Source: Thermoleophilaceae bacterium (GTDB lineage Bacteria; Actinomycetota; Thermoleophilia; Solirubrobacterales; Thermoleophilaceae). Taken from it: DNA of 64,000 nt. The notes under the pieces were generated by a model. The model did no database searches, was not told the origin of the DNA, and saw only the letters and a list, made by a program, of their open reading frames with translations. A program made the position numbers and the translations under genes. This document shows, piece by piece, positions 38,567 through 48,617 of this stretch. Numbering within the stretch: position 1 is the stretch's first letter; each line of letters opens with the position of its first letter. The stretch is taken from contig JAUJOQ010000004.1 in NCBI GenBank assembly GCA_030447725.1, forward strand, positions 227,231 through 291,230, in the 5' to 3' direction.

Positions 38567-39811
38567 ATGGCTCCCGCCAAGCTGCAGGCCCCGAAGGGGA
38601 CCTTCGACATCCTGCCGCCCGACGGCCGCCGCCGTGACGCCCTGCGCGCCGTGGCGGACGACCTGCTCGGGCGCGCGGGCTACGACGCCTTCGAGTCCCC
38701 GATCATCGAGGACACGGACCTCTTCGCCCGTGGGGTGGGCACCTCGACGGACATCGTGCAGAAGGAGATGTTCACCTTCGAGGACAAGGGAGGCCGGTCG
38801 CTGACGCTGCGGCCCGAGGGTACTGCGGGGGCCTGCCGCGCCTACGTGGAGCACGGCATGCACAAACGCCCGCAGCCGGTCAAGCTGCGCTACTGGGGCC
38901 CTTTCTTTCGTCACGAGGCGCCGCAGGCCGGCCGCTTTCGCCAGTTCGCGCAGATCGGCGCCGAGGCCCTGGGGTCGGATGACCCCTCGCTGGACGCGGA
39001 GCTGATCCTCCTGCTCGGAGACCTGCTCCAGCGCTCGGGGGTGCAGAGCCGCCTGCGGCTGTCGAGCCTCGGCAACGCCGGCACCCGCGCAGCCTACGGC
39101 GAGCAGCTGCGCGCCCACCTCCGCGATCGCGAGTCCGAGCTGTCGGAGGAGGTACGCGGGCGCATCGACGCCAACCCGCTGCGCGCCTTCGACTCCGACC
39201 ACGAGGGCACCCGAGCGGTGATGGCCGATGCGCCGCGGCTGATCGATGGCCTCGATCGCGAGGATGCCGAGCACTTCGCCGAAGTGCGGGCCATGCTCGA
39301 CGATGCCGCGGTGTCCTACGACCTCGATCCCACCCTGGTCAGGGGCCTCGACTACTACACGCGCACCGTGTTCGAGTTCGAGAGCCGTTCTCTGGGAGCG
39401 CAAAGCGGCGTGGGAGGCGGCGGACGATACGACGGCCTGGTGGAGCGGCTCGGCGGCCCGGCGACGCCTGGGGTGGGCTGGGCGGCCGGCGTGGAGCGGA
39501 TCGTGCTGGCCGGCGACACCGCCTCCGAACACGAGTCGCCGGTCTACGTGGCGATCGCCACCGAGCAGCATCGCCGGGCCGCCTTCGCCCTCGCGCGTGA
39601 GCTGAGGGGGATGGGGGTCGCCGCCCAGGTCGAGCAGGCCGGCCGTTCGATGAAGGGCCAGATGAAGCACGCGGGCCGCCTGGATGCGTCCGCGGTGGTG
39701 ATCGTGGGCGACGAGATCGAGGTCAAGGACATGAGCACGGGCGAGCAGGTGTCGGTGGCGGACGCTGGTGAGGCGGTCGCCGTCGTGGCCGGGGGTGCGA
39801 TGTCCGGATGA
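38567..39811 (+). CDS. hisS: histidyl-tRNA synthetase
   Basis: Class II synthetase, 414 residues. KLQAPKGTFDILPP at the N terminus, TLRPEGTAGACRAYVEH, motif 2 KLRYWGPFFRHEAPQAGRFRQF, HisA motif LVRGLDYYTRTVFEF, HisB motif GVGGGGRYDGLVERLGG, and a C-terminal anticodon-binding domain (YVAIATEQHRRAAFALARELR, MKHAGRLDASAVVIVGDEIE). Start ATG 38567, three bases after the hydrolase stop; stop overlaps aspS. Confidence 0.96.
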   Translation: MAPAKLQAPKGTFDILPPDGRRRDALRAVADDLLGRAGYDAFESPIIEDTDLFARGVGTSTDIVQKEMFTFEDKGGRSLTLRPEGTAGACRAYVEHGMHKRPQPVKLRYWGPFFRHEAPQAGRFRQFAQIGAEALGSDDPSLDAELILLLGDLLQRSGVQSRLRLSSLGNAGTRAAYGEQLRAHLRDRESELSEEVRGRIDANPLRAFDSDHEGTRAVMADAPRLIDGLDREDAEHFAEVRAMLDDAAVSYDLDPTLVRGLDYYTRTVFEFESRSLGAQSGVGGGGRYDGLVERLGGPATPGVGWAAGVERIVLAGDTASEHESPVYVAIATEQHRRAAFALARELRGMGVAAQVEQAGRSMKGQMKHAGRLDASAVVIVGDEIEVKDMSTGEQVSVADAGEAVAVVAGGAMSG

Positions 39812-41547
39812 CCGACACCTTCGACAACCGCTTCCGCAGCGCGTGGGCGGGCGAGGTCCGCCCTGAGCAAGCCGGTGAGGACCTGAGGGTCGCCGGCTGG
39901 GTGCACCGCCGGCGCGACCACGGCGGCCTGATCTTCATCGACCTGCGTGACCGCGAAGGCATTCTGCAGCTTGTGGTTCACCCAGAGCATGCCTCGACGG
40001 CGCACGAGGCGGCGAAGGCGCTGCGGGCCGAGGACGTGATCAGCGTCTCCGGCAAGCTGGTGGAGCGCGAGGAGGGCACCGTCAACCCGGATCTGCCCAC
40101 CGGCGAGGTCGAGCTCGAGGTGGCCTCATTCGACCTGCTCGCCGACGCGCAGACGCCGCCGTTTCAGGTCGACGAGGACGAGCCGGTGAGCGAGGAGCTG
40201 CGGCTGCGCTACCGCTACCTCGACCTGCGCAAGCCGCGGATGGCCGAGGCGATCGTGCTGCGCCACCGCGTGACCTCGACGATCCGACGCTACTTCGAGA
40301 AGGCCGGCTTCCTCGAGGTGGAGACGCCGATGCTCACCCGCTCCACCCCGGAGGGAGCGCGGGACTACCTCGTGCCAAACCGCCGCCAGCCGGGCACCTG
40401 GTACGCGCTGCCCCAGTCGCCCCAGCTCTTCAAGCAGCTGCTGATGATGGGCGGCCTGGAGCGCTACTTCCAGATCGTGCGCTGCTTTCGCGACGAGGAC
40501 TTCCGCGCCGACCGCCAGCCGGAGTTCACGCAGCTGGATGTGGAGATGTCCTTCGTGGAGGAGGACGACGTGATGGCCGTTTGCGACGCTCTGATGCCCG
40601 AGGTGCTGGCCCTGGGGGGCATCGAGCTCGGAGGCCCGATCGAGCGAATCCCATACGACGAGGCGCTGCTGCGCTACGGCACCGACCGTCCCGACCGCCG
40701 GATAGCGATCGAGATCGAAGACCTCGGGCAGGTGTTCGCGTCATCGACGTTCAAGGTGTTCTCCGCCGCGCTCGAGGGCGGCGGCGTCGTGCGCGGGATG
40801 AGTGCGACCGGCGAGTTCCCGCGCAGCCGGTTCGACGCGCTCACCGAGAAGGCGCAGTCAATCGGCGCCAAGGGCTTGGTCTGGGGCGTGGTGGAGGCGG
40901 ACGGCTGGCGCTCCCCGGTGGCCAAGTTTCTCTCGGAGGAGGAGATCGCGGGCCTGATAGCGGCCACCGGCGCCGAGGTGGGCGACGCGATCCTCGTGGT
41001 TGCCGACGAGCCCGCCACCGCCGCGCGGGTGCTCGGCGAGCTGCGCCTCGACGTCGGCGTGCCGCGCGAGGGCCATGACCTGCTGTGGGTCACAGACTTC
41101 CCGATGTTCGACTGGAACTCCGACGAGCGCCGCTACGACGCCCTCCACCATCCCTTCACCGCGCCGAGCGGGGACCTCGACGCCGACCCCGGCGCGTGGA
41201 GGAGCCGCGCCTACGACCTGGTGTGGAACGGCACCGAGCTCGGCGGGGGGTCCATCCGCATAAACACGCCCGACGTGCAGTCCAAGGTCTTCGCCGCACT
41301 CGGGATGTCGGAGGAGCAGGCCCGCGAGCAGTTCGGCTTCCTGCTCGAGGCGCTGACCTACGGCACGCCCCCGCACGGGGGCATCGCCTTCGGCATCGAC
41401 CGGATGGTGGCGCTGCTCGGTGGGCGCTCCTCCATCCGTGACGTGATCGCCTTCCCGAAGGCCGCCAGCGGAGCCGATCCGCTCACCGGCGCCCCAGCCG
41501 GGGTGGACGATCGCCAGCTGCGCGAGCTGGGCCTGCGATATGCCTGA
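39808..41547 (+). CDS. aspS: aspartyl-tRNA synthetase, probably non-discriminating
   Basis: 579 residues with N-terminal OB fold (VAGWVHRRRDHGGLIFIDLRD), RYRYLDLRKPRM, motif 2 FKQLLMMGGLERYFQIVRCFRDEDFRADRQPEFTQLD, bacterial insertion (GAD) domain, and motif 3 HGGIAFGIDRMVALL. The histidine of RRRDHGG is the residue linked to relaxed tRNA recognition (Leu in discriminating enzymes such as that of E. coli), which predicts charging of both tRNA-Asp and tRNA-Asn with GatCAB repair. ATG overlaps the hisS stop. Confidence 0.95.
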   Translation: MTDTFDNRFRSAWAGEVRPEQAGEDLRVAGWVHRRRDHGGLIFIDLRDREGILQLVVHPEHASTAHEAAKALRAEDVISVSGKLVEREEGTVNPDLPTGEVELEVASFDLLADAQTPPFQVDEDEPVSEELRLRYRYLDLRKPRMAEAIVLRHRVTSTIRRYFEKAGFLEVETPMLTRSTPEGARDYLVPNRRQPGTWYALPQSPQLFKQLLMMGGLERYFQIVRCFRDEDFRADRQPEFTQLDVEMSFVEEDDVMAVCDALMPEVLALGGIELGGPIERIPYDEALLRYGTDRPDRRIAIEIEDLGQVFASSTFKVFSAALEGGGVVRGMSATGEFPRSRFDALTEKAQSIGAKGLVWGVVEADGWRSPVAKFLSEEEIAGLIAATGAEVGDAILVVADEPATAARVLGELRLDVGVPREGHDLLWVTDFPMFDWNSDERRYDALHHPFTAPSGDLDADPGAWRSRAYDLVWNGTELGGGSIRINTPDVQSKVFAALGMSEEQAREQFGFLLEALTYGTPPHGGIAFGIDRMVALLGGRSSIRDVIAFPKAASGADPLTGAPAGVDDRQLRELGLRYA

Positions 41548-41805: not shown

Positions 41806-43260
41806 ATGGCTGATTCCCTGCGCGACCACCTCGAAAGTCCGCGCGGCCGGGGCGTGTTGGCGTGCGCCCCCCACACCGGCGCAGCAGGAGGCGCCCCTTG
41901 CGGCGACATCGTGCGGATCTCGGTACGCGTGGAGGGCGACCGGGTCGTGGAGGCCGGCTTCGAGGCCGGCGGCTGTGCGGCGGCGCGCGCGGCCGGCAGC
42001 GCTACGGTCGAGATGGTGGAGGGCGCGCCGCTGCTGGACGCCGCGTCGGTGACCCCCGCGGCGATCGCGTCAGAGCTCGGCGGACTCTCCCCTGTGGCGG
42101 CTCACGCCGCCGACCTGGCGGCCGACGCCCTGCACCGGGCCCTCGGGCTGGCCGCGCGCGACGGCGCCGCATCTATAACGCCCGACCCCGGCCGTACCCT
42201 GGTCGCGATGAGCGGAGGGGTCGACAGCGCCGCCGCCGCCCAGCTGGCGCTGGAGGCAGGCGAGCAGGTGCTGGCGGTGACGCTGGAGCTGTGGTCGGAC
42301 CCCGGCACCGACGGGGAGCGCAGCTGCTGCTCGCCGCAGGCGGTCACGGGCGCCCGGGCGCTGGCGCATGGCATGGGCATCCCCCACCTCACGCTCGACC
42401 TCCGCGACCAGTTCCGGACCGCGGTGGTCGACGACTTCCTGGCCGGCTACGCGGCGGGTGGCACCCCGAACCCCTGCGTGCGCTGCAATGGCCTGGTGCG
42501 CTTCGACTTCATGCTGGCACTGGCGCGACGGCTGGGCGCGGCACGCCTGGTCACCGGCCACTACGCCCGGATAGCCGGTGACGCCGAGGGGCTGCTGGTG
42601 CAGGCCGGCGTCGATCCCGTCAAGGACCAGAGCTACGTGCTGGCCCGGCTCACCGGCTCAGAGCTCGAGCGTCTGCGCTTCCCCCTCGGCGAGCTGGAAA
42701 AGCGGCGGGTGCGCGAGCTGGCGCGGCAGGCGGGGCTGCCAGTGGCCGAGAAGCGCGAGAGCCAGGACCTCTGCTTTCTCGCGGGTACGGGTACGCGCGA
42801 CTTCATGCGCCGCCACGGTGGGGGGACGGTTGGCGCCGCGGCGGTGAGTGGCGACATCGTCGATCGCGACGGCCGCGTGCTCGGACGCCACGGCGGGCAT
42901 CAGGGCTTCACCGTCGGGCAGCGGCGGGGGATCGGCGTCTCCGCCCGCGAGCCTCTCTACGTGCTGTCCAAGGACGCGCGGCGCAACCGCGTGGTGGTGG
43001 GGCCGCGCGCGGCCCTTGCCACGCGCAGGGTCGGTCTGGGGCCGGTGCGGCTGCACCGGCGCGGGGCGGCGGTCCAAGCCGTACGCGTGCGCTATGGCGC
43101 ACCGTCGATGTCGTGCGCCGCCGCCGATGTCCGCGCGGGCGGGCATGCGAGCCTCGAGCTCGAGCTGGACCGCGAGGTGCGGGGTGCGGCGCCCGGCCAG
43201 ACGGCGTGCCTGATGCGCGGCGACCTCGTGGTGGGCTGGGGGACGATCGCCGGTGGCTGA
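41806..43260 (+). CDS. mnmA: IscU-like scaffold domain fused to tRNA 2-thiouridylase MnmA
   Basis: 484 residues. Residues about 1-115 match IscU/SufU: GGAPCGDIVRISVRV and FEAGGCAAARAAGSATVEMVEG carry the first two cluster cysteines, while the third (HCxxLAEDAI in IscU) is Ala in AAHAADLAADAL. From about 125 on it is MnmA: ATP loop VAMSGGVDSAAAA, catalytic NPCVRCNGLVRFDFM and SQDLCFLAG cysteines, TGHYARI, DQSYVLARL, FTVGQRRGIGVS, ending with a beta-barrel domain. Makes s2U34 in tRNAs for Lys, Glu, Gln. The fused domain may deliver sulfur or an Fe-S cluster. Confidence 0.93.
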   Translation: MADSLRDHLESPRGRGVLACAPHTGAAGGAPCGDIVRISVRVEGDRVVEAGFEAGGCAAARAAGSATVEMVEGAPLLDAASVTPAAIASELGGLSPVAAHAADLAADALHRALGLAARDGAASITPDPGRTLVAMSGGVDSAAAAQLALEAGEQVLAVTLELWSDPGTDGERSCCSPQAVTGARALAHGMGIPHLTLDLRDQFRTAVVDDFLAGYAAGGTPNPCVRCNGLVRFDFMLALARRLGAARLVTGHYARIAGDAEGLLVQAGVDPVKDQSYVLARLTGSELERLRFPLGELEKRRVRELARQAGLPVAEKRESQDLCFLAGTGTRDFMRRHGGGTVGAAAVSGDIVDRDGRVLGRHGGHQGFTVGQRRGIGVSAREPLYVLSKDARRNRVVVGPRAALATRRVGLGPVRLHRRGAAVQAVRVRYGAPSMSCAAADVRAGGHASLELELDREVRGAAPGQTACLMRGDLVVGWGTIAGG

Positions 43261-43642
43261 TCGGATCGTCATCGAGGCTCCGTTGGACGAGACCTATGGG
43301 CCCGTCGTCCGTCTGATCGTCAGCGGCATCGCAGAACGCGCGAACTTCGGCTTCGAGGCGATGGACGATCTGCAGCTGGCCATCGAGCGGCTCCTGGCCG
43401 AGGCGGGCTCCGACGGCCGTGTGACCATGAGCTTCGAGCTTGTCCAGGGCCGCATCCGGACCAGGATCGGTCCGCTGCCGGAGACCGGGCTTGCCGACGC
43501 GCTGCAGGATACGGACGTCACACCGGGCCGATTGTCGCTCCGCCAGATCCTGGACACCGTGGTGGACTCCTTCGGAGTCGACGCCGCGATCGACGGCGCG
43601 ATCGTCGTGCGGCTCGAGAAACTGGTGGCGGCCGCGCCGTGA
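43253..43642 (+). CDS. RsbW-like anti-sigma factor with degenerate ATP site
   Basis: 129 residues aligned to RsbW/SpoIIAB over the first half: RIVIEAPLDETYGPVVRLIVSGIAERANFGFEAMDDLQLAIERLLAEAG. The N box (SEACTNAVQH in RsbW) is reduced to ERLLAEAG without the Asn, and no DxGxG lid follows (RIGPLPETG). It probably still folds and may bind the downstream sigma factor, but kinase activity is doubtful. GTG start overlaps the mnmA stop by 8 bp; stop overlaps the sigma gene. Confidence 0.75.
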   Translation: MADRIVIEAPLDETYGPVVRLIVSGIAERANFGFEAMDDLQLAIERLLAEAGSDGRVTMSFELVQGRIRTRIGPLPETGLADALQDTDVTPGRLSLRQILDTVVDSFGVDAAIDGAIVVRLEKLVAAAP

Positions 43643-44400
43643 GACACGCCGGCGACGACGCGAAGGCACGCGCCCGCGTCGAGGATCGTGAGCTGTTGCG
43701 CCTCTGCCGCGAGGAGGGCGACAGCAAGGCCCGCGAGCAGCTCGTGCAGCGCCATCTGCCGCTGGTGCGCTCCCTGGCGCGGCGCTACGCCGGCAGGGGC
43801 GAGCCGCTCGAGGACATCGAGCAGGTCGGGGCGATTGGACTGCTGAAGGCGATCGACCGCTTCGAGCTCGAGCGCGACGTGTCCTTGACCACCTATGCCA
43901 CCCCCAACGTGGTGGGTGAGATAAAGCGCCACTTTCGCGACAAGGGATGGGCGATCAGGGTGCCGCGGGCCCTGCAGGAGCTGCACGCCAAGATGTCTCC
44001 CACGATTGAGCGGCTGACCTCCAAGCTGGGCCGCTCGCCGAGCGTTGGAGAGATCGCGACCGCGCTTGGGGCAACGCCGGAGGAGGTGCTCGAGGCGTTG
44101 GAGGTCGGCTCGGCCTACACCACCCTCTCGCTGTCGGCATCGCCTCAGGGCGCAGAGGGGGACTCCGATCCGCTGGACGCGATCGGAGAGGAGGACGTCG
44201 GCTTCGAGCGGTCCGAGGACAGGGTCTCGCTGGCGCCGGCACTCGGCATCCTTCCTCCCCGGGAGCGCGAGATCCTGCGCATGCGCTTCGAGGATGGACT
44301 GCCCCAGACCCAGATCGCCGACCGGGTCGGCCTCTCCCAGATGCACGTCTCACGCCTGATCCGGAAGTCGCTGGCCGTGATGCGCGACGAACTGCAGTGA
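43639..44400 (+). CDS. RNA polymerase sigma factor, SigB/SigF family
   Basis: 253 residues with region 2 (HLPLVRSLARRYAGRGEPLEDIEQVGAIGLLKAIDRFELERDVSLTTYATPNVVGEIKRHFRDKGWAIRVPR), region 3 (GRSPSVGEIATALGATPEEVLEAL) and region 4 helix-turn-helix (LPPREREILRMRFEDGLPQTQIADRVGLSQMHVSRLIRKSL). The VGEIKRHFRDKGWA form is characteristic of SigF/SigB stress sigma factors. Coupled to the RsbW-like gene by GTGA overlap, and overlaps the next lipoprotein gene. Confidence 0.93.
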   Translation: MRHAGDDAKARARVEDRELLRLCREEGDSKAREQLVQRHLPLVRSLARRYAGRGEPLEDIEQVGAIGLLKAIDRFELERDVSLTTYATPNVVGEIKRHFRDKGWAIRVPRALQELHAKMSPTIERLTSKLGRSPSVGEIATALGATPEEVLEALEVGSAYTTLSLSASPQGAEGDSDPLDAIGEEDVGFERSEDRVSLAPALGILPPREREILRMRFEDGLPQTQIADRVGLSQMHVSRLIRKSLAVMRDELQ

Positions 44401-45974
44401 ACATCGGCGCGGCCTACCGCGCTCGCGCGCTCTCCTTCCTGCTGATCGTCGGCGCCCTGATCGGCGTGGGCTGCTCTCCCGGCGGCCAGCCCGAGCTCAG
44501 TGGCGCGCGCGAGGGTGGCTCGGTCTCCGTGGCGCTGGCTTCGGCTCCCGACAGCCTCGATCCCGCCGTGGCCGCCTCGCCGACCGCGCTGCAGGCGCTC
44601 TGGCTCTCACACACTCCTGTGCTCACGTACGCGCGGGGCGAGGGGGAGGCGGGAACCCAGGTCATTCCCGGCCTGGCCGTAGACATGCCCGAGGTATCGG
44701 ACGGCGGGCGCACCGTGAAGCTCCGGCTCCGCCAGGGGCTGCGGTACTCCGACGGACGGCGGGTGGTGGCCGGCGACTTCGAGCGCGCGATCAAGCGTGC
44801 CCTGCGCCTCAACGTCCACGGCCTCGATCTGTTCGGCGACATCAAGGGTGCGCGCCGCTACTCCCGGTCCCTGCTTGCGGGAGCGGACATAGCCGGCATC
44901 TCGGCCGATGGGCGGACCGGCGAAGTGCGGATCGACCTGCGCCGGCCCGATCCCGACCTTACCCATTCGCTGGCGCAGCCGATGGCTGCGCCGGTGCCCG
45001 CCGGCACCCCCATGCGCGACCTGAGCAGCCGGCCGCCTTCCGGGGTGGGCCCATACAGGTCCGTGCCCGCTCGCCCCGGCACGGCCTTCGTGCTCGAACG
45101 CCGACGCGGCTTCCGCCTGCCGGGGGTGGCCGCCGGCCTCGTGGACGAGGTCTCGGGCGAGGTGATCCGCGACGCCGGTGCGCAGTCGCAGGCGGCTATC
45201 GACAGCCGCGTCGACGTAGCCGAGGGCGAGCCCCCCGTCAACCTGGTGGCACGAATCCGCTCCGAGCTCAAGGATCGCTATTCAGAGCACCTCACGCTCG
45301 CCCTCGACTACCTGGCCATGGATGTGAGCCGGCCGCCGTTCGCCGGCGAGGACATGCGCCGGGCTGTGAGCTACGCGATCGACGAGACCGCGCTCGAGCG
45401 CCTGCGGGACGGGTTCCTCGCGCCCACCTGCAACGTGGTGCCGCCACAGGTCGTGGGCTACCGGGCGCTCGATCCCTGCCCCTACGGCGAGCGGGAGCAG
45501 AACTCGGACGTGGTCAGGGCGCGCGAGCTCGTGAAGGACTCCGCGCGGCGGCCTCCACCGGTGATCGTGTCCGCCGAGGGCAGGCGCGCCGCAGCGCTGG
45601 AGCGCTACCTGGTCCGCACCCTCGACAAGGTCGGCTTCCGCGCCCGGCGCGCTCGCACCGCAGGCGAGCAAACCCAGGCTCAGGTCTCATTCGCGCGGGT
45701 GGAGCCGGTCCTGCCGCTGCCTGGGCGCTACCTCGAGGTCGTGGACGACAGCGTCCTGGATCGCCGCATCGATCTACTCGGGCGCGAGGCCCCGGCCCAG
45801 GACTCGGCCGACGACTGGGCGGCTCTCGATCTTGAGGTGGTGGAGGGAGCGGAGGTCGCCCCCTACGGCGTCGAGACCGTCGGCGTGCTGATGTCCGAGC
45901 GGATGGACCCCGAGAACTGTTTGCTCTATCACCCCGTCTTCGGCCTCGACTGGTCGAGCCTCTGCCTGCGCTGA
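44397..45974 (+). CDS. ABC transporter substrate-binding lipoprotein, peptide/nickel type
   Basis: 525 residues; lipoprotein signal LSFLLIVGALIGVGC (lipobox GVGC about residue 26), then SBP family 5 motifs: SVALASAPDSLDPAVAASPT, LRQGLRYSDGRRVVAGDFERAIKRAL and FAGEDMRRAVSYAIDETAL. It lacks any adjacent permease or ATPase genes. Co-located with the sigma gene by a 4-bp overlap, so possibly stress expressed or a sensor. Ligand unknown. Confidence 0.85.
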   Translation: MNIGAAYRARALSFLLIVGALIGVGCSPGGQPELSGAREGGSVSVALASAPDSLDPAVAASPTALQALWLSHTPVLTYARGEGEAGTQVIPGLAVDMPEVSDGGRTVKLRLRQGLRYSDGRRVVAGDFERAIKRALRLNVHGLDLFGDIKGARRYSRSLLAGADIAGISADGRTGEVRIDLRRPDPDLTHSLAQPMAAPVPAGTPMRDLSSRPPSGVGPYRSVPARPGTAFVLERRRGFRLPGVAAGLVDEVSGEVIRDAGAQSQAAIDSRVDVAEGEPPVNLVARIRSELKDRYSEHLTLALDYLAMDVSRPPFAGEDMRRAVSYAIDETALERLRDGFLAPTCNVVPPQVVGYRALDPCPYGEREQNSDVVRARELVKDSARRPPPVIVSAEGRRAAALERYLVRTLDKVGFRARRARTAGEQTQAQVSFARVEPVLPLPGRYLEVVDDSVLDRRIDLLGREAPAQDSADDWAALDLEVVEGAEVAPYGVETVGVLMSERMDPENCLLYHPVFGLDWSSLCLR

Positions 45975-46001: not shown

Positions 46002-48617
46002 ATGACGGCGGCCGAGATTCGCGAGCGGTTTCTCTCCTTCTTCGAGGAGCGCGGGCACCTGCGGGTGCCTTCGGCCTCGCTGGTGCCCGCGAGCTACGAC
46101 CCCACGGTGCTGCTCACGACCGCCGGCATGCAGCCGTTCAAGCCCTACTTCCGCGGCGAGGAGGAGCCGCCGTCACGGCGCCTCACCTCCTGCCAGAAGG
46201 TGTTCCGCTCGACCGACATCGAGAAGGTGGGCACGACGGCGCGCCACCTGACGTTCTTCGAGATGCTCGGCAACTTCTCGGTCGGCGACTACTTCAAGCG
46301 GGGAGCGGCCGAGTACGCCTGGGAGCTGTCAACGCAGTTCTTCGGGTTCGATCCCGAACGGGTCTGGATCACGGTGTTCGGCGGCGACGACGCCCTGGGC
46401 CTCGGATCGGACGAGGAGGCGGTCGCCTGCTGGCGCTCGATCGGCGTTCCCGACGACCGCATCGTCCGGCTCGGCACCGAGGACAACTTCTGGTGGTCGG
46501 GACCCACCGGGCCCTGCGGCCCGTGCTCAGAGCTCTATCTCGACCGGGGCCTCGACTTCGGTGGTGAGGACGACCTCCCTGGCGACGAGACCGAGCGCTT
46601 CCTGGAGTTCTGGAACCTGGTGTTCATGCAGTACGAGGTGCACGCCGACGGCTCGCTGACCGACCTGCCGCAGCTGAACATCGACACGGGGCTCGGCCTC
46701 GACCGCCTCGCGGCGATCCTCCAGGACGTGCCCTCGGTGTTCGAGACCGATCACTTCCAGCCCCTGGTCCGCTTCGGCGAGGAGCGCTCGGGTCACCGCT
46801 CGGGCTCCGACGCGCCCACCACGCGCGCGCTGCGAGTGCTGGCCGACCACGGTCGCGCCGCGACCTTCCTGCTGGCCGACGGCGTGGTGCCCTCCAACGA
46901 GGACCGCGGCTACATCCTGCGGCGCATCCTGCGAAGGGCGATCCAGCAGGGCCGCGTGCTGGGCATCGGCCAGAGCTTTCTCGCCGATCTCTGCGAGGTG
47001 GTGATCGAGACCATGGGCTCGGCCTACCCCGAGCTGCGCGAGGAGCGCGAGACGATAGCCCGCTGGGCCGCCGCCGAGGAGGAGGGCTTCGGCCGCACCC
47101 TCGCCCAGGGCGAGCGCCTGCTGGCCGACCTCGTGGCTCGCGCGCGCGAGGAAGGTGCCTCCGAGGTGAGCGCAGAGGACGCCTTCCGGCTGCACGACAC
47201 CTACGGCTTTCCCTTCGAGATGACCAAGGAGCTGCTCGACGAGGCCGGCCTCGCGGTCGACGAGCAGCGGTTCGCCGCGCTCATGGAAGAGGCGCGCAAG
47301 CTCGCGCGCACCAGCTCCCGCGATACCGGAGCCGACAGCTCCGCCGAGCGTGCGGCCGGCTTCGCCAAGGCGGCGGGGTTTCAGACCCGCTTCGTGGGCT
47401 ACGAGTCGACCGAGGCGGACACGGTGGCGCGGGCCGTGGAGCGCGAGGACGGCAACGTGCTCGTCAAGCTCGAGGACAGCCCCTTCTATCCCGCCGGCGG
47501 CGGTCAGGTGTCCGACGCCGGAACGGTGGAGACCGGCTCGGGACGCGCCAGGGTGGTCGACGTGTTCCGGCTGGGCTCCGATCAGGCGCTGGCGCTCGAG
47601 CCCGTGGAGGGCGAGATCGCCGCGGGCGAGCCGGTGCACGCGACGGTGGACCGCGATACCCGCCTGGCCACGATGCGCAACCACACGGCCACCCACCTGC
47701 TGCACGCCGCCCTGCGCGAGCGCCTGGGCGCGCACGTGCGCCAGGCCGGCTCCTACGTGGGACCGGACAAGCTGCGCTTCGACTTCGCCCACGGCGAGCG
47801 CCTCTCCGAGGCCGAGCTGCGCGATGTCGAGGCGCGCGTGAACGGCTGGGTGGCGGCCAACCGGCCCGTACGCGCCATCGAGATGGGGCTGGACGAGGCG
47901 CGCAACCTTGGCGCGATGGCCCTGTTCGGGGAGAAGTACGGCGACTGGGTGCGGATGGTCGAGGTGGACGAGGTGTCGCGGGAGCTGTGCGGCGGCACGC
48001 ATGTGGCCACCACCGCAGAGATAGGGCTCTTCCACGTGACCGCCGAGACCTCGAGTGCCTCCAACGTCCGGCGCATCGAGGCCGTGACGGGCGCCGTGGC
48101 CGCCGAGCTGTTCGAGGAGCGCACGGCTCGGCTGCGCGAGCTGTCGGGCCTGCTCAAGGCGCCCGAGGGAGAGCTGGTCCGGGCGGTCGAGAAGCTGACC
48201 GCCCGCGCGCGTGAGGCCGGTAGGCGCGCTGGAGTGGCAGACGACGCCGCCACCGCAGAACGCCTGGTGGCGGCCGCTGAGGATGTGGCCGGCGTCGCGG
48301 TGGTCGTGGAACGCAGCGAGGCCGCGGACACCAAGGCCCTGCTGGCGCTGGCCGACCGGGTTCGGCAGCGCCTGGGAGACGCCGTCGTGGTGCTGGGCGC
48401 CGCGAGCGACGGGCGCGCGCAGCTCGTGGCGAACGTGGCTCCCGCGGTGGTGGCGCGCGGCGTGAAGGCCGGGGAGGTGGTGCGCGCGGCGGCAGAGGTC
48501 GTGGGAGGCGGCGGCGGGGGCCGCGACACGATGGCGCAGGCCGGCGGACGCGACCCCGCGAAGCTCGACGAGGCGCTCGGGACGGCGCGCGCGACGATCG
48601 GGCGGTCGCTTTCCTAG
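46002..48617 (+). CDS. alaS: alanyl-tRNA synthetase
   Basis: 871 residues, normal length. Catalytic domain: FEERGHLRVPSASLVP, TTAGMQPFKPYFRGEE, ARHLTFFEMLGNFSVGDYFK, WWSGPTGPCGPCSELY; editing domain with HTATHLLHAALRERLG and CGGTHVATTAEIG zinc/hydrolysis motifs; C-terminal C-Ala region ending with a glycine-rich segment GGGGGGRDTMAQAGG. TAGACT at 45988-45993 is a plausible -10 box 8 bases before the ATG. Followed one base later by ruvX. Confidence 0.97.
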   Translation: MTAAEIRERFLSFFEERGHLRVPSASLVPASYDPTVLLTTAGMQPFKPYFRGEEEPPSRRLTSCQKVFRSTDIEKVGTTARHLTFFEMLGNFSVGDYFKRGAAEYAWELSTQFFGFDPERVWITVFGGDDALGLGSDEEAVACWRSIGVPDDRIVRLGTEDNFWWSGPTGPCGPCSELYLDRGLDFGGEDDLPGDETERFLEFWNLVFMQYEVHADGSLTDLPQLNIDTGLGLDRLAAILQDVPSVFETDHFQPLVRFGEERSGHRSGSDAPTTRALRVLADHGRAATFLLADGVVPSNEDRGYILRRILRRAIQQGRVLGIGQSFLADLCEVVIETMGSAYPELREERETIARWAAAEEEGFGRTLAQGERLLADLVARAREEGASEVSAEDAFRLHDTYGFPFEMTKELLDEAGLAVDEQRFAALMEEARKLARTSSRDTGADSSAERAAGFAKAAGFQTRFVGYESTEADTVARAVEREDGNVLVKLEDSPFYPAGGGQVSDAGTVETGSGRARVVDVFRLGSDQALALEPVEGEIAAGEPVHATVDRDTRLATMRNHTATHLLHAALRERLGAHVRQAGSYVGPDKLRFDFAHGERLSEAELRDVEARVNGWVAANRPVRAIEMGLDEARNLGAMALFGEKYGDWVRMVEVDEVSRELCGGTHVATTAEIGLFHVTAETSSASNVRRIEAVTGAVAAELFEERTARLRELSGLLKAPEGELVRAVEKLTARAREAGRRAGVADDAATAERLVAAAEDVAGVAVVVERSEAADTKALLALADRVRQRLGDAVVVLGAASDGRAQLVANVAPAVVARGVKAGEVVRAAAEVVGGGGGGRDTMAQAGGRDPAKLDEALGTARATIGRSLS

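What the first reader, a model, noticed from the sequence alone, without database searches (positions are those of the whole stretch)
41806..43260. IscU-like scaffold fused to MnmA, with the third cluster cysteine missing
The N-terminal 115 residues of this MnmA align to IscU/SufU including GGAPCGD and GGC, but the third ligand (HC in IscU) is replaced by Ala. MnmA normally receives sulfur through relay proteins; a covalently attached scaffold suggests either a sulfur relay or an Fe-S cluster used by the thiolase, which some MnmA/TtuA-type enzymes need. The lost cysteine argues against a normal scaffold and for a repurposed one.
Basis: partly seen in the sequence, partly recalled or inferred. 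Interest (0 to 1): 0.7.

Follow-up and report, generated by a model that had tools for sequence, protein, structure and literature searches.

The report
Iron-sulfur scaffold domain fused to MnmA
In a broad set of early-branching Actinomycetota, the enzyme that puts sulfur on the wobble base of tRNA (MnmA) carries, welded to its front end, a domain descended from the iron-sulfur scaffold IscU that has lost part of its cluster-building site in every lineage yet usually keeps exactly enough to hold one metal ion, so it looks like a scaffold turned into a tethered sulfur carrier.

Summary
Window 41806-43260 (+) encodes 484 aa: a complete IscU/NifU-fold domain (residues 1-118) joined to a full "C-type" MnmA (131-481). 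Scaffold ligands C32, D34, C57 and H100 are present; the third cysteine is Ala101. This is not a local accident: by hand count 92 of 159 genomes in the class sample have the co-linear fusion, and it recurs in a few other families of the phylum. Elsewhere (e.g. Clostridia) the same two proteins are separate neighbouring genes.

New here: among 119 fused domains none keeps the full five-residue IscU site. Where the Cys-Asp-Cys triad survives, exactly one of His or Cys3 survives with it (77 His-only, 12 Cys3-only, 0 both, 0 neither); 22 of 23 separate IscUs keep all five. Both types are scattered on the tree. That is the signature of a single-metal site, not of an Fe-S scaffold. The genome's one recognisable desulfurase, SufS, carries the HxHD motif that charges zinc-SufU. 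Best reading (about 50%): a metal-gated persulfide carrier and desulfurase dock tethered to a [4Fe-4S]-type MnmA. Chemistry is inferred; no paper describing the fusion was found.

The parts
41806..43260 (+). IscU-MnmA fusion gene, 484 aa (P0001)
   Evidence: full chain AlphaFold2 pLDDT 95.3, pTM 0.93
41806..42159 (+). IscU/NifU_N-fold domain, residues 1-118
   Evidence: Pfam 5-113; fold match 4eb5_C TM 0.88
41899..41901 (+). C32 = scaffold Cys1, the most conserved ligand; inferred persulfide acceptor
41905..41907 (+). D34 of the CGD motif, metal ligand in ISCU and SufU
   Evidence: PMC11021402
41974..41976 (+). C57 = scaffold Cys2
42103..42108 (+). H100-A101: the HC pair of IscU with the Cys (third ligand; persulfide acceptor in human ISCU2) replaced by Ala
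   Evidence: PMC11021402
42160..42195 (+). short linker, residues 119-130
   Evidence: secondary structure
42196..43248 (+). MnmA part, residues 131-481, PP-loop SGGVDS at 136-141
42325..42330 (+). C174-C175, the 'CC' of C-type MnmA
42475..42486 (+). C224-x-x-C227 (NPCVRCN), cluster-type motif of C-type MnmA
   Evidence: invariant in 68 fused sequences
42772..42774 (+). C323 (SQDLCF), third cluster/catalytic cysteine of MnmA
   Evidence: invariant
39808..41547 (+). aspS, directly upstream; AspS-MnmA-AlaS order recurs in relatives
46002..48617 (+). alaS, downstream in the same run of genes

Best explanation
The gene is a permanent fusion of IscU with MnmA that arose from the widespread iscS-iscU-mnmA gene neighbourhood. 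The N-terminal domain no longer builds Fe-S clusters. It binds one divalent metal (Zn or Fe) through C32, D34, C57 and H100, docks on a cysteine desulfurase (SufS in this genome; an adjacent desulfurase in other families), has C32 released from the metal and loaded as a persulfide, and hands the sulfur to the attached [4Fe-4S]-type MnmA, which thiolates U34 of tRNA. Shown by sequence and structure prediction: the fusion, the IscU fold, the loss of Cys3, the four-ligand pattern, the C-type MnmA motifs, SufS with HxHD as the only recognisable desulfurase in this assembly, and the neighbouring-gene arrangement in other lineages. Inferred: metal binding and identity, docking, the acceptor cysteine, the direction of sulfur flow and the cluster in MnmA.
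For: Ligand pattern: fused domains with C1-D-C2 intact keep exactly one of His/Cys3 (77 His, 12 Cys3, 0 both, 0 neither), while 22 of 23 separate IscUs (nearly all next to an mnmA) keep all five; the one exception is a split member of a fused family. Each type needs at least 3 changes on well-supported branches of an MnmA-only tree. C-D-C-H is the Fe/Zn site of free ISCU, and Cys3 is the specific persulfide acceptor of human ISCU2 (PMC11021402). In SufU, Cys1 accepts the persulfide from SufS after a SufS His replaces it on zinc (PMC10216065). In the E. coli IscS-IscU structure Cys1 is the cysteine nearest the IscS loop and was proposed as first acceptor (PMC2854127). This genome's SufS aligns to B. 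subtilis SufS, E 3e-133, with 'HPHD' conserved; the second NifS-like protein, on contig C9, lacks the expected catalytic Cys by inspection. Cys1 outlives the others: it is the only ligand left in 17 of 18 f9 sequences (the eighteenth aligns a His uncertainly) and present in all 18, and it is clearly lost in only 2 of 118 fused sequences with data. Desulfurase genes abut the fusion in f23, f10 and f11; desulfurase, IscU and MnmA occur as separate neighbours in f29 and f6. MnmA cluster motifs are invariant while scaffold ligands erode.
Against: No biochemical evidence. The domain's chemistry is lost altogether in f7 (a truncated remnant without cysteines) and in some f16 members, and the domain itself is gone in some f8 members, so MnmA can work without it. 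In human ISCU2 Cys1 is dispensable for persulfidation, so Cys1 as acceptor rests on SufU and on the E. coli model. The high pTM of the full chain suggests a fixed rather than swinging domain; whether C32 can reach MnmA's cysteines was not measured because no coordinates are returned. The four-ligand site could be purely structural. The genome is 93.75% complete, so a missing IscS is not excluded, and a TusA-like protein is present.
Confidence: 0.5

Rival explanations
1. Dedicated cluster donor: the fused domain is still a scaffold that assembles an Fe-S cluster and delivers it to the [4Fe-4S] site of the attached MnmA.
For: All fused MnmA are C-type with CxxC and a third Cys; separate IscU genes next to MnmA in f6, f29 and other phyla have the complete assembly site; f10, f11, f54 and part of f8 keep three cysteines.
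Against: 0 of 119 fused domains keep all five assembly residues; Cys3 is absent in about 90% of them; f9 keeps essentially one ligand although its MnmA motif is intact. MnmA without the domain is the rule in the rest of the phylum sample.
Confidence: 0.15
2. Docking or structural module only: the domain holds a desulfurase (or tRNA) near MnmA, and its metal site, where kept, just stabilises the fold; sulfur goes straight from the desulfurase to MnmA.
For: Repeated erosion of ligands, a cysteine-free truncated remnant in f7, loss of the whole domain in parts of f8; very confident single-body model of the full chain (pTM 0.93); zinc is reported to affect IscU stability (PMC4243993, title and abstract only).
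Against: Does not explain why Cys1 is kept in 18 of 18 f9 sequences after nearly every other ligand is gone, and explains less directly why exactly four ligands are kept in 89 of 89 cases with an intact triad.
Confidence: 0.3
3. Chance read-through, assembly error or decaying fusion without function.
For: Two f23 members are split by a stop or frameshift (L122, L263).
Against: The same junction in roughly 90 genomes of the class sample and about 25 more in the phylum sample, with invariant C32, D34, C57 across a 55-sequence subset and N-domain identity to relatives not far below that of the whole chain.
Confidence: 0.02

Closest known systems
C-type MnmA (Shigi 2020, [4Fe-4S]-dependent tRNA 2-thiouridylase; reviewed in PMC11784392)
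   Same: Whole catalytic part, with CC, CxxC and C motifs and PP-loop
   Different: The C-type enzymes described there are not reported with a scaffold domain
IscU / NifU_N (A. fulgidus IscU 4eb5, E. coli IscU)
   Same: Fold, N-terminal helix, CGD and GC motifs, His
   Different: Third cysteine lost; covalently joined to an enzyme that uses sulfur; never keeps all five assembly residues when fused
SufU, zinc-dependent sulfurtransferase (B. subtilis, M. tuberculosis)
   Same: Same superfamily; four-ligand metal site; Cys1 as acceptor (inferred here); a SufS with HxHD is present
   Different: His instead of Cys3 as fourth ligand in this protein; scores far below the SufU model cut-off; this genome has a separate SufU-like gene beside sufS
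Apicomplexan MnmA with a predicted SufE-like N-terminal domain (PMC10219651, Discussion)
   Same: A desulfurase-partner fold placed in front of MnmA, proposed as sulfur relay
   Different: Different fold (SufE-like, predicted only) in eukaryotes
iscU-mnmA gene pair of Clostridia and others (e.g. C. perfringens nifU CPE1784 / trmU CPE1783, PMC6958937; loci L153-L169)
   Same: The same two proteins encoded side by side, mostly abutting or overlapping
   Different: Separate genes, complete IscU assembly site

Membership tests
MnmA (C-type) | MnmA family model over curated cut-off | tested here: met
   NF001138 327.1 bits (284); TIGR00420 266.3 (236.95)
MnmA (C-type) | CC, CxxC and C cysteine motifs | tested here: met
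   RSCCSP, NPCVRCN, SQDLCF
MnmA (C-type) | [4Fe-4S] cluster and s2U34 activity | not testable with these tools
   needs purified protein
IscU scaffold | NifU_N fold | tested here: met
   Pfam E 9e-24; TM 0.88 to 4eb5_C
IscU scaffold | Five-residue assembly site Cys, Asp, Cys, His, Cys | tested here: not met
   C32, D34, C57, H100, then A101
IscU scaffold | iscU equivalog model over cut-off | tested here: not met
   TIGR01999 53.6 bits against 192.4
IscU scaffold | Assembles and transfers an Fe-S cluster | not testable with these tools
   needs purified protein
SufU | SufU equivalog model over cut-off | tested here: not met
   TIGR01994 36.7 bits against 92.5
SufU | Cys-Asp-Cys-Cys zinc site | tested here: not met
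   fourth ligand is His, third Cys is Ala; the f8/f10/f11/f54 fusions match it by ligand type only
SufU | A SufS with the zinc-swapping His (HxHD) in the genome | tested here: met
   partnership itself not tested
SufU | Cys1 takes persulfide from SufS | not testable with these tools
   needs purified proteins

The most novel reading that the evidence does not exclude
After fusing to MnmA, IscU was converted several times independently from a cluster scaffold into a single-metal, persulfide-carrying domain by discarding either His or Cys3 but never both, giving a one-chain sulfur pathway (desulfurase to tethered carrier to [4Fe-4S] MnmA) that does the job of the Tus relay.
Probability: 0.35. 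Interest if true: 0.8.

Novelty: new variant of a known kind. Interest (0 to 1): 0.6.

Why it matters
How sulfur reaches MnmA, and whether its Fe-S cluster matters, is disputed (PMC11784392). Here nature has fused the putative donor to the acceptor, so which cysteines are needed can be tested in one polypeptide. The alternative loss of His or Cys3 also separates the metal-binding role of the IscU site from its cluster-building role by natural variation in several lineages.

Tried and rejected
Chance or frameshift origin: rejected, same junction in many genomes. Correlation of scaffold loss with a switch to D-type MnmA (DxxC): tested and absent, all examined fused, truncated and neighbouring actinobacterial MnmAs are CxxC. 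A compensating cysteine for the lost Cys3: none conserved; C20 is not among the conserved columns. Adjacent desulfurase in the window: none; the own genome has SufS and SufU on another contig. A TusA-like protein exists, so a TusA route is not excluded. Literature searches for the fusion gave no paper describing it (open-licence papers only).

Full report
What is there. The frame at 41806-43260 (+) encodes 484 residues. Residues 5-113 match NifU_N (E 9e-24) and 131-481 match MnmA models above their curated cut-offs. The gene sits in a tightly packed run: hisS, aspS, this gene, a small ORF, a sigma factor, a lipoprotein-like ORF and alaS (hisS, aspS and alaS named from their sequence by inspection). 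Folded alone the N-terminal domain gives mean pLDDT 93.4 and its best solved match is A. fulgidus IscU (TM 0.88, rmsd 1.5). The full chain gives pLDDT 95.3 and pTM 0.93, with MnmA structures and IscU structures as the two sets of matches. The pTM suggests, without coordinates to prove it, that the two domains have a fixed arrangement.

How common. Searching the class with the whole protein (159 genomes), I counted by hand 92 with a match running through both domains. Family codes are the tool's: f1-f4 are the window's order. One named contig, L170, 'Solirubrobacterales bacterium', carries the fusion and nests in the f1-f4 clade. In the phylum sample (257 genomes) the fusion recurs in f23, f54 and f16, and a very degenerate form in f34; the rest listed have MnmA alone. 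f7 has MnmA with a short cysteine-free stretch that looks like a remnant of the domain.

Where it came from. In f29 and f6 the order is cysteine desulfurase, IscU, MnmA as separate genes, and in f23, f10 and f11 a desulfurase abuts the fused gene. Desulfurases were recognised by a PLP-lysine motif, not by a family model. In Clostridia, Patescibacteria, Desulfuromonadales and Syntrophaceae the two proteins are adjacent separate genes, mostly abutting or overlapping. In the window's order the desulfurase is no longer adjacent. This is a neighbourhood-to-fusion series.

The ligand pattern. States at Cys1-Asp-Cys2-His-Cys3 were read from one alignment of 119 fused and 23 separate domains. Separate: 22 of 23 keep all five; the exception is a split f23 member (L122). 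Fused with Cys1, Asp and Cys2: 77 keep His and lack Cys3, 12 keep Cys3 and lack His, none keep both, none keep neither. Fused with a broken triad: 27 lack both, 3 show His (one a truncated f5 contig, one f16, one f9 where the alignment is uncertain). On an MnmA-only tree (92 rows, quick method) the His type needs 5 changes, at least 3 on starred branches, and the Cys3 type likewise, so the pattern is not one inherited event. The number of truly independent events is still small, about five, and the tree has many open forks. The f1-f5 and f23 groups have His; f10, f11, f54 and part of f8 have Cys3; f9 keeps Cys1 in 18 of 18 with Cys2 and Asp lost. I noticed this rule in the first 84 fused sequences and then checked it on 35 more, where it held; most of the added ones are f5 and f23, so they are not independent lineages.

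What that means. C-D-C-H is the tetrahedral metal site of free ISCU, while Cys3 is the residue that specifically receives the persulfide in human ISCU2 (PMC11021402). SufU holds zinc with cysteines and an aspartate and takes the persulfide on Cys1 when a SufS histidine replaces it on the metal (PMC10216065). The fused domains have kept what a single-metal site needs and discarded the rest. The genome's only recognisable desulfurase is SufS (the second strong match, on C9, lacks the expected catalytic Cys by eye), and it keeps the HPHD motif when aligned to B. subtilis SufS. I therefore favour a metal-gated carrier. Each chemical step is inference.

The catalytic half. All actinobacterial MnmAs examined here are C-type at NPCxxCN and SQ[DE]xCF, the class reported to need a [4Fe-4S] cluster (Shigi 2020, via PMC11784392); the first CC pair is reduced in part of f8, f9 and f16. 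C224, C227 and C323 are invariant among 68 fused sequences. Scaffold ligands erode while these do not, so an intact scaffold site is not needed to keep the MnmA cluster motif.

Limits. No biochemistry; genomes in the whole-genome set are unnamed; the survey outside the phylum is not a census; the literature held is open-licence only; the window genome is 93.75% complete. The count of 92 and the split into fused and unfused rely on alignment start positions.

Noticed in passing
L068-L073 (family f7): MnmA preceded by a short stretch that aligns to the strands and last helix of the scaffold domain but has no cysteines; looks like a shrunken remnant still kept in frame.
   Followed up: partly
L080-L087, L123-L132 (family f9): Fused domain keeps Cys1 in 18 of 18 sequences while Asp, Cys2 and Cys3 are gone; the genomes checked also have a separate strong NifU_N match.
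   Followed up: partly
L122 and L263 (family f23): Scaffold domain and MnmA split by a stop or frameshift; in L122 the separate scaffold ORF still shows the fused-type C-D-C-H-A site, so either re-fission or sequencing error.
   Followed up: partly
L078, L079, L269-L272 (family f8): MnmA with no scaffold domain inside a clade that otherwise has the fusion: apparent secondary loss.
   Followed up: no
window 43253-43642 and 43639-44400: A 129-aa ORF with no Pfam match overlapping the end of mnmA, followed by a sigma-70 family factor; position suggests an anti-sigma/sigma pair inside the run of tRNA-related genes.
   Followed up: no
G000 contig C9:235299-236036 (L144): Cysteine-desulfurase-like protein without the usual catalytic cysteine, by inspection.
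   Followed up: no
window 44397-45974: A solute-binding lipoprotein-like ORF (by inspection) between the sigma factor and alaS, an odd neighbour for translation genes.
   Followed up: no
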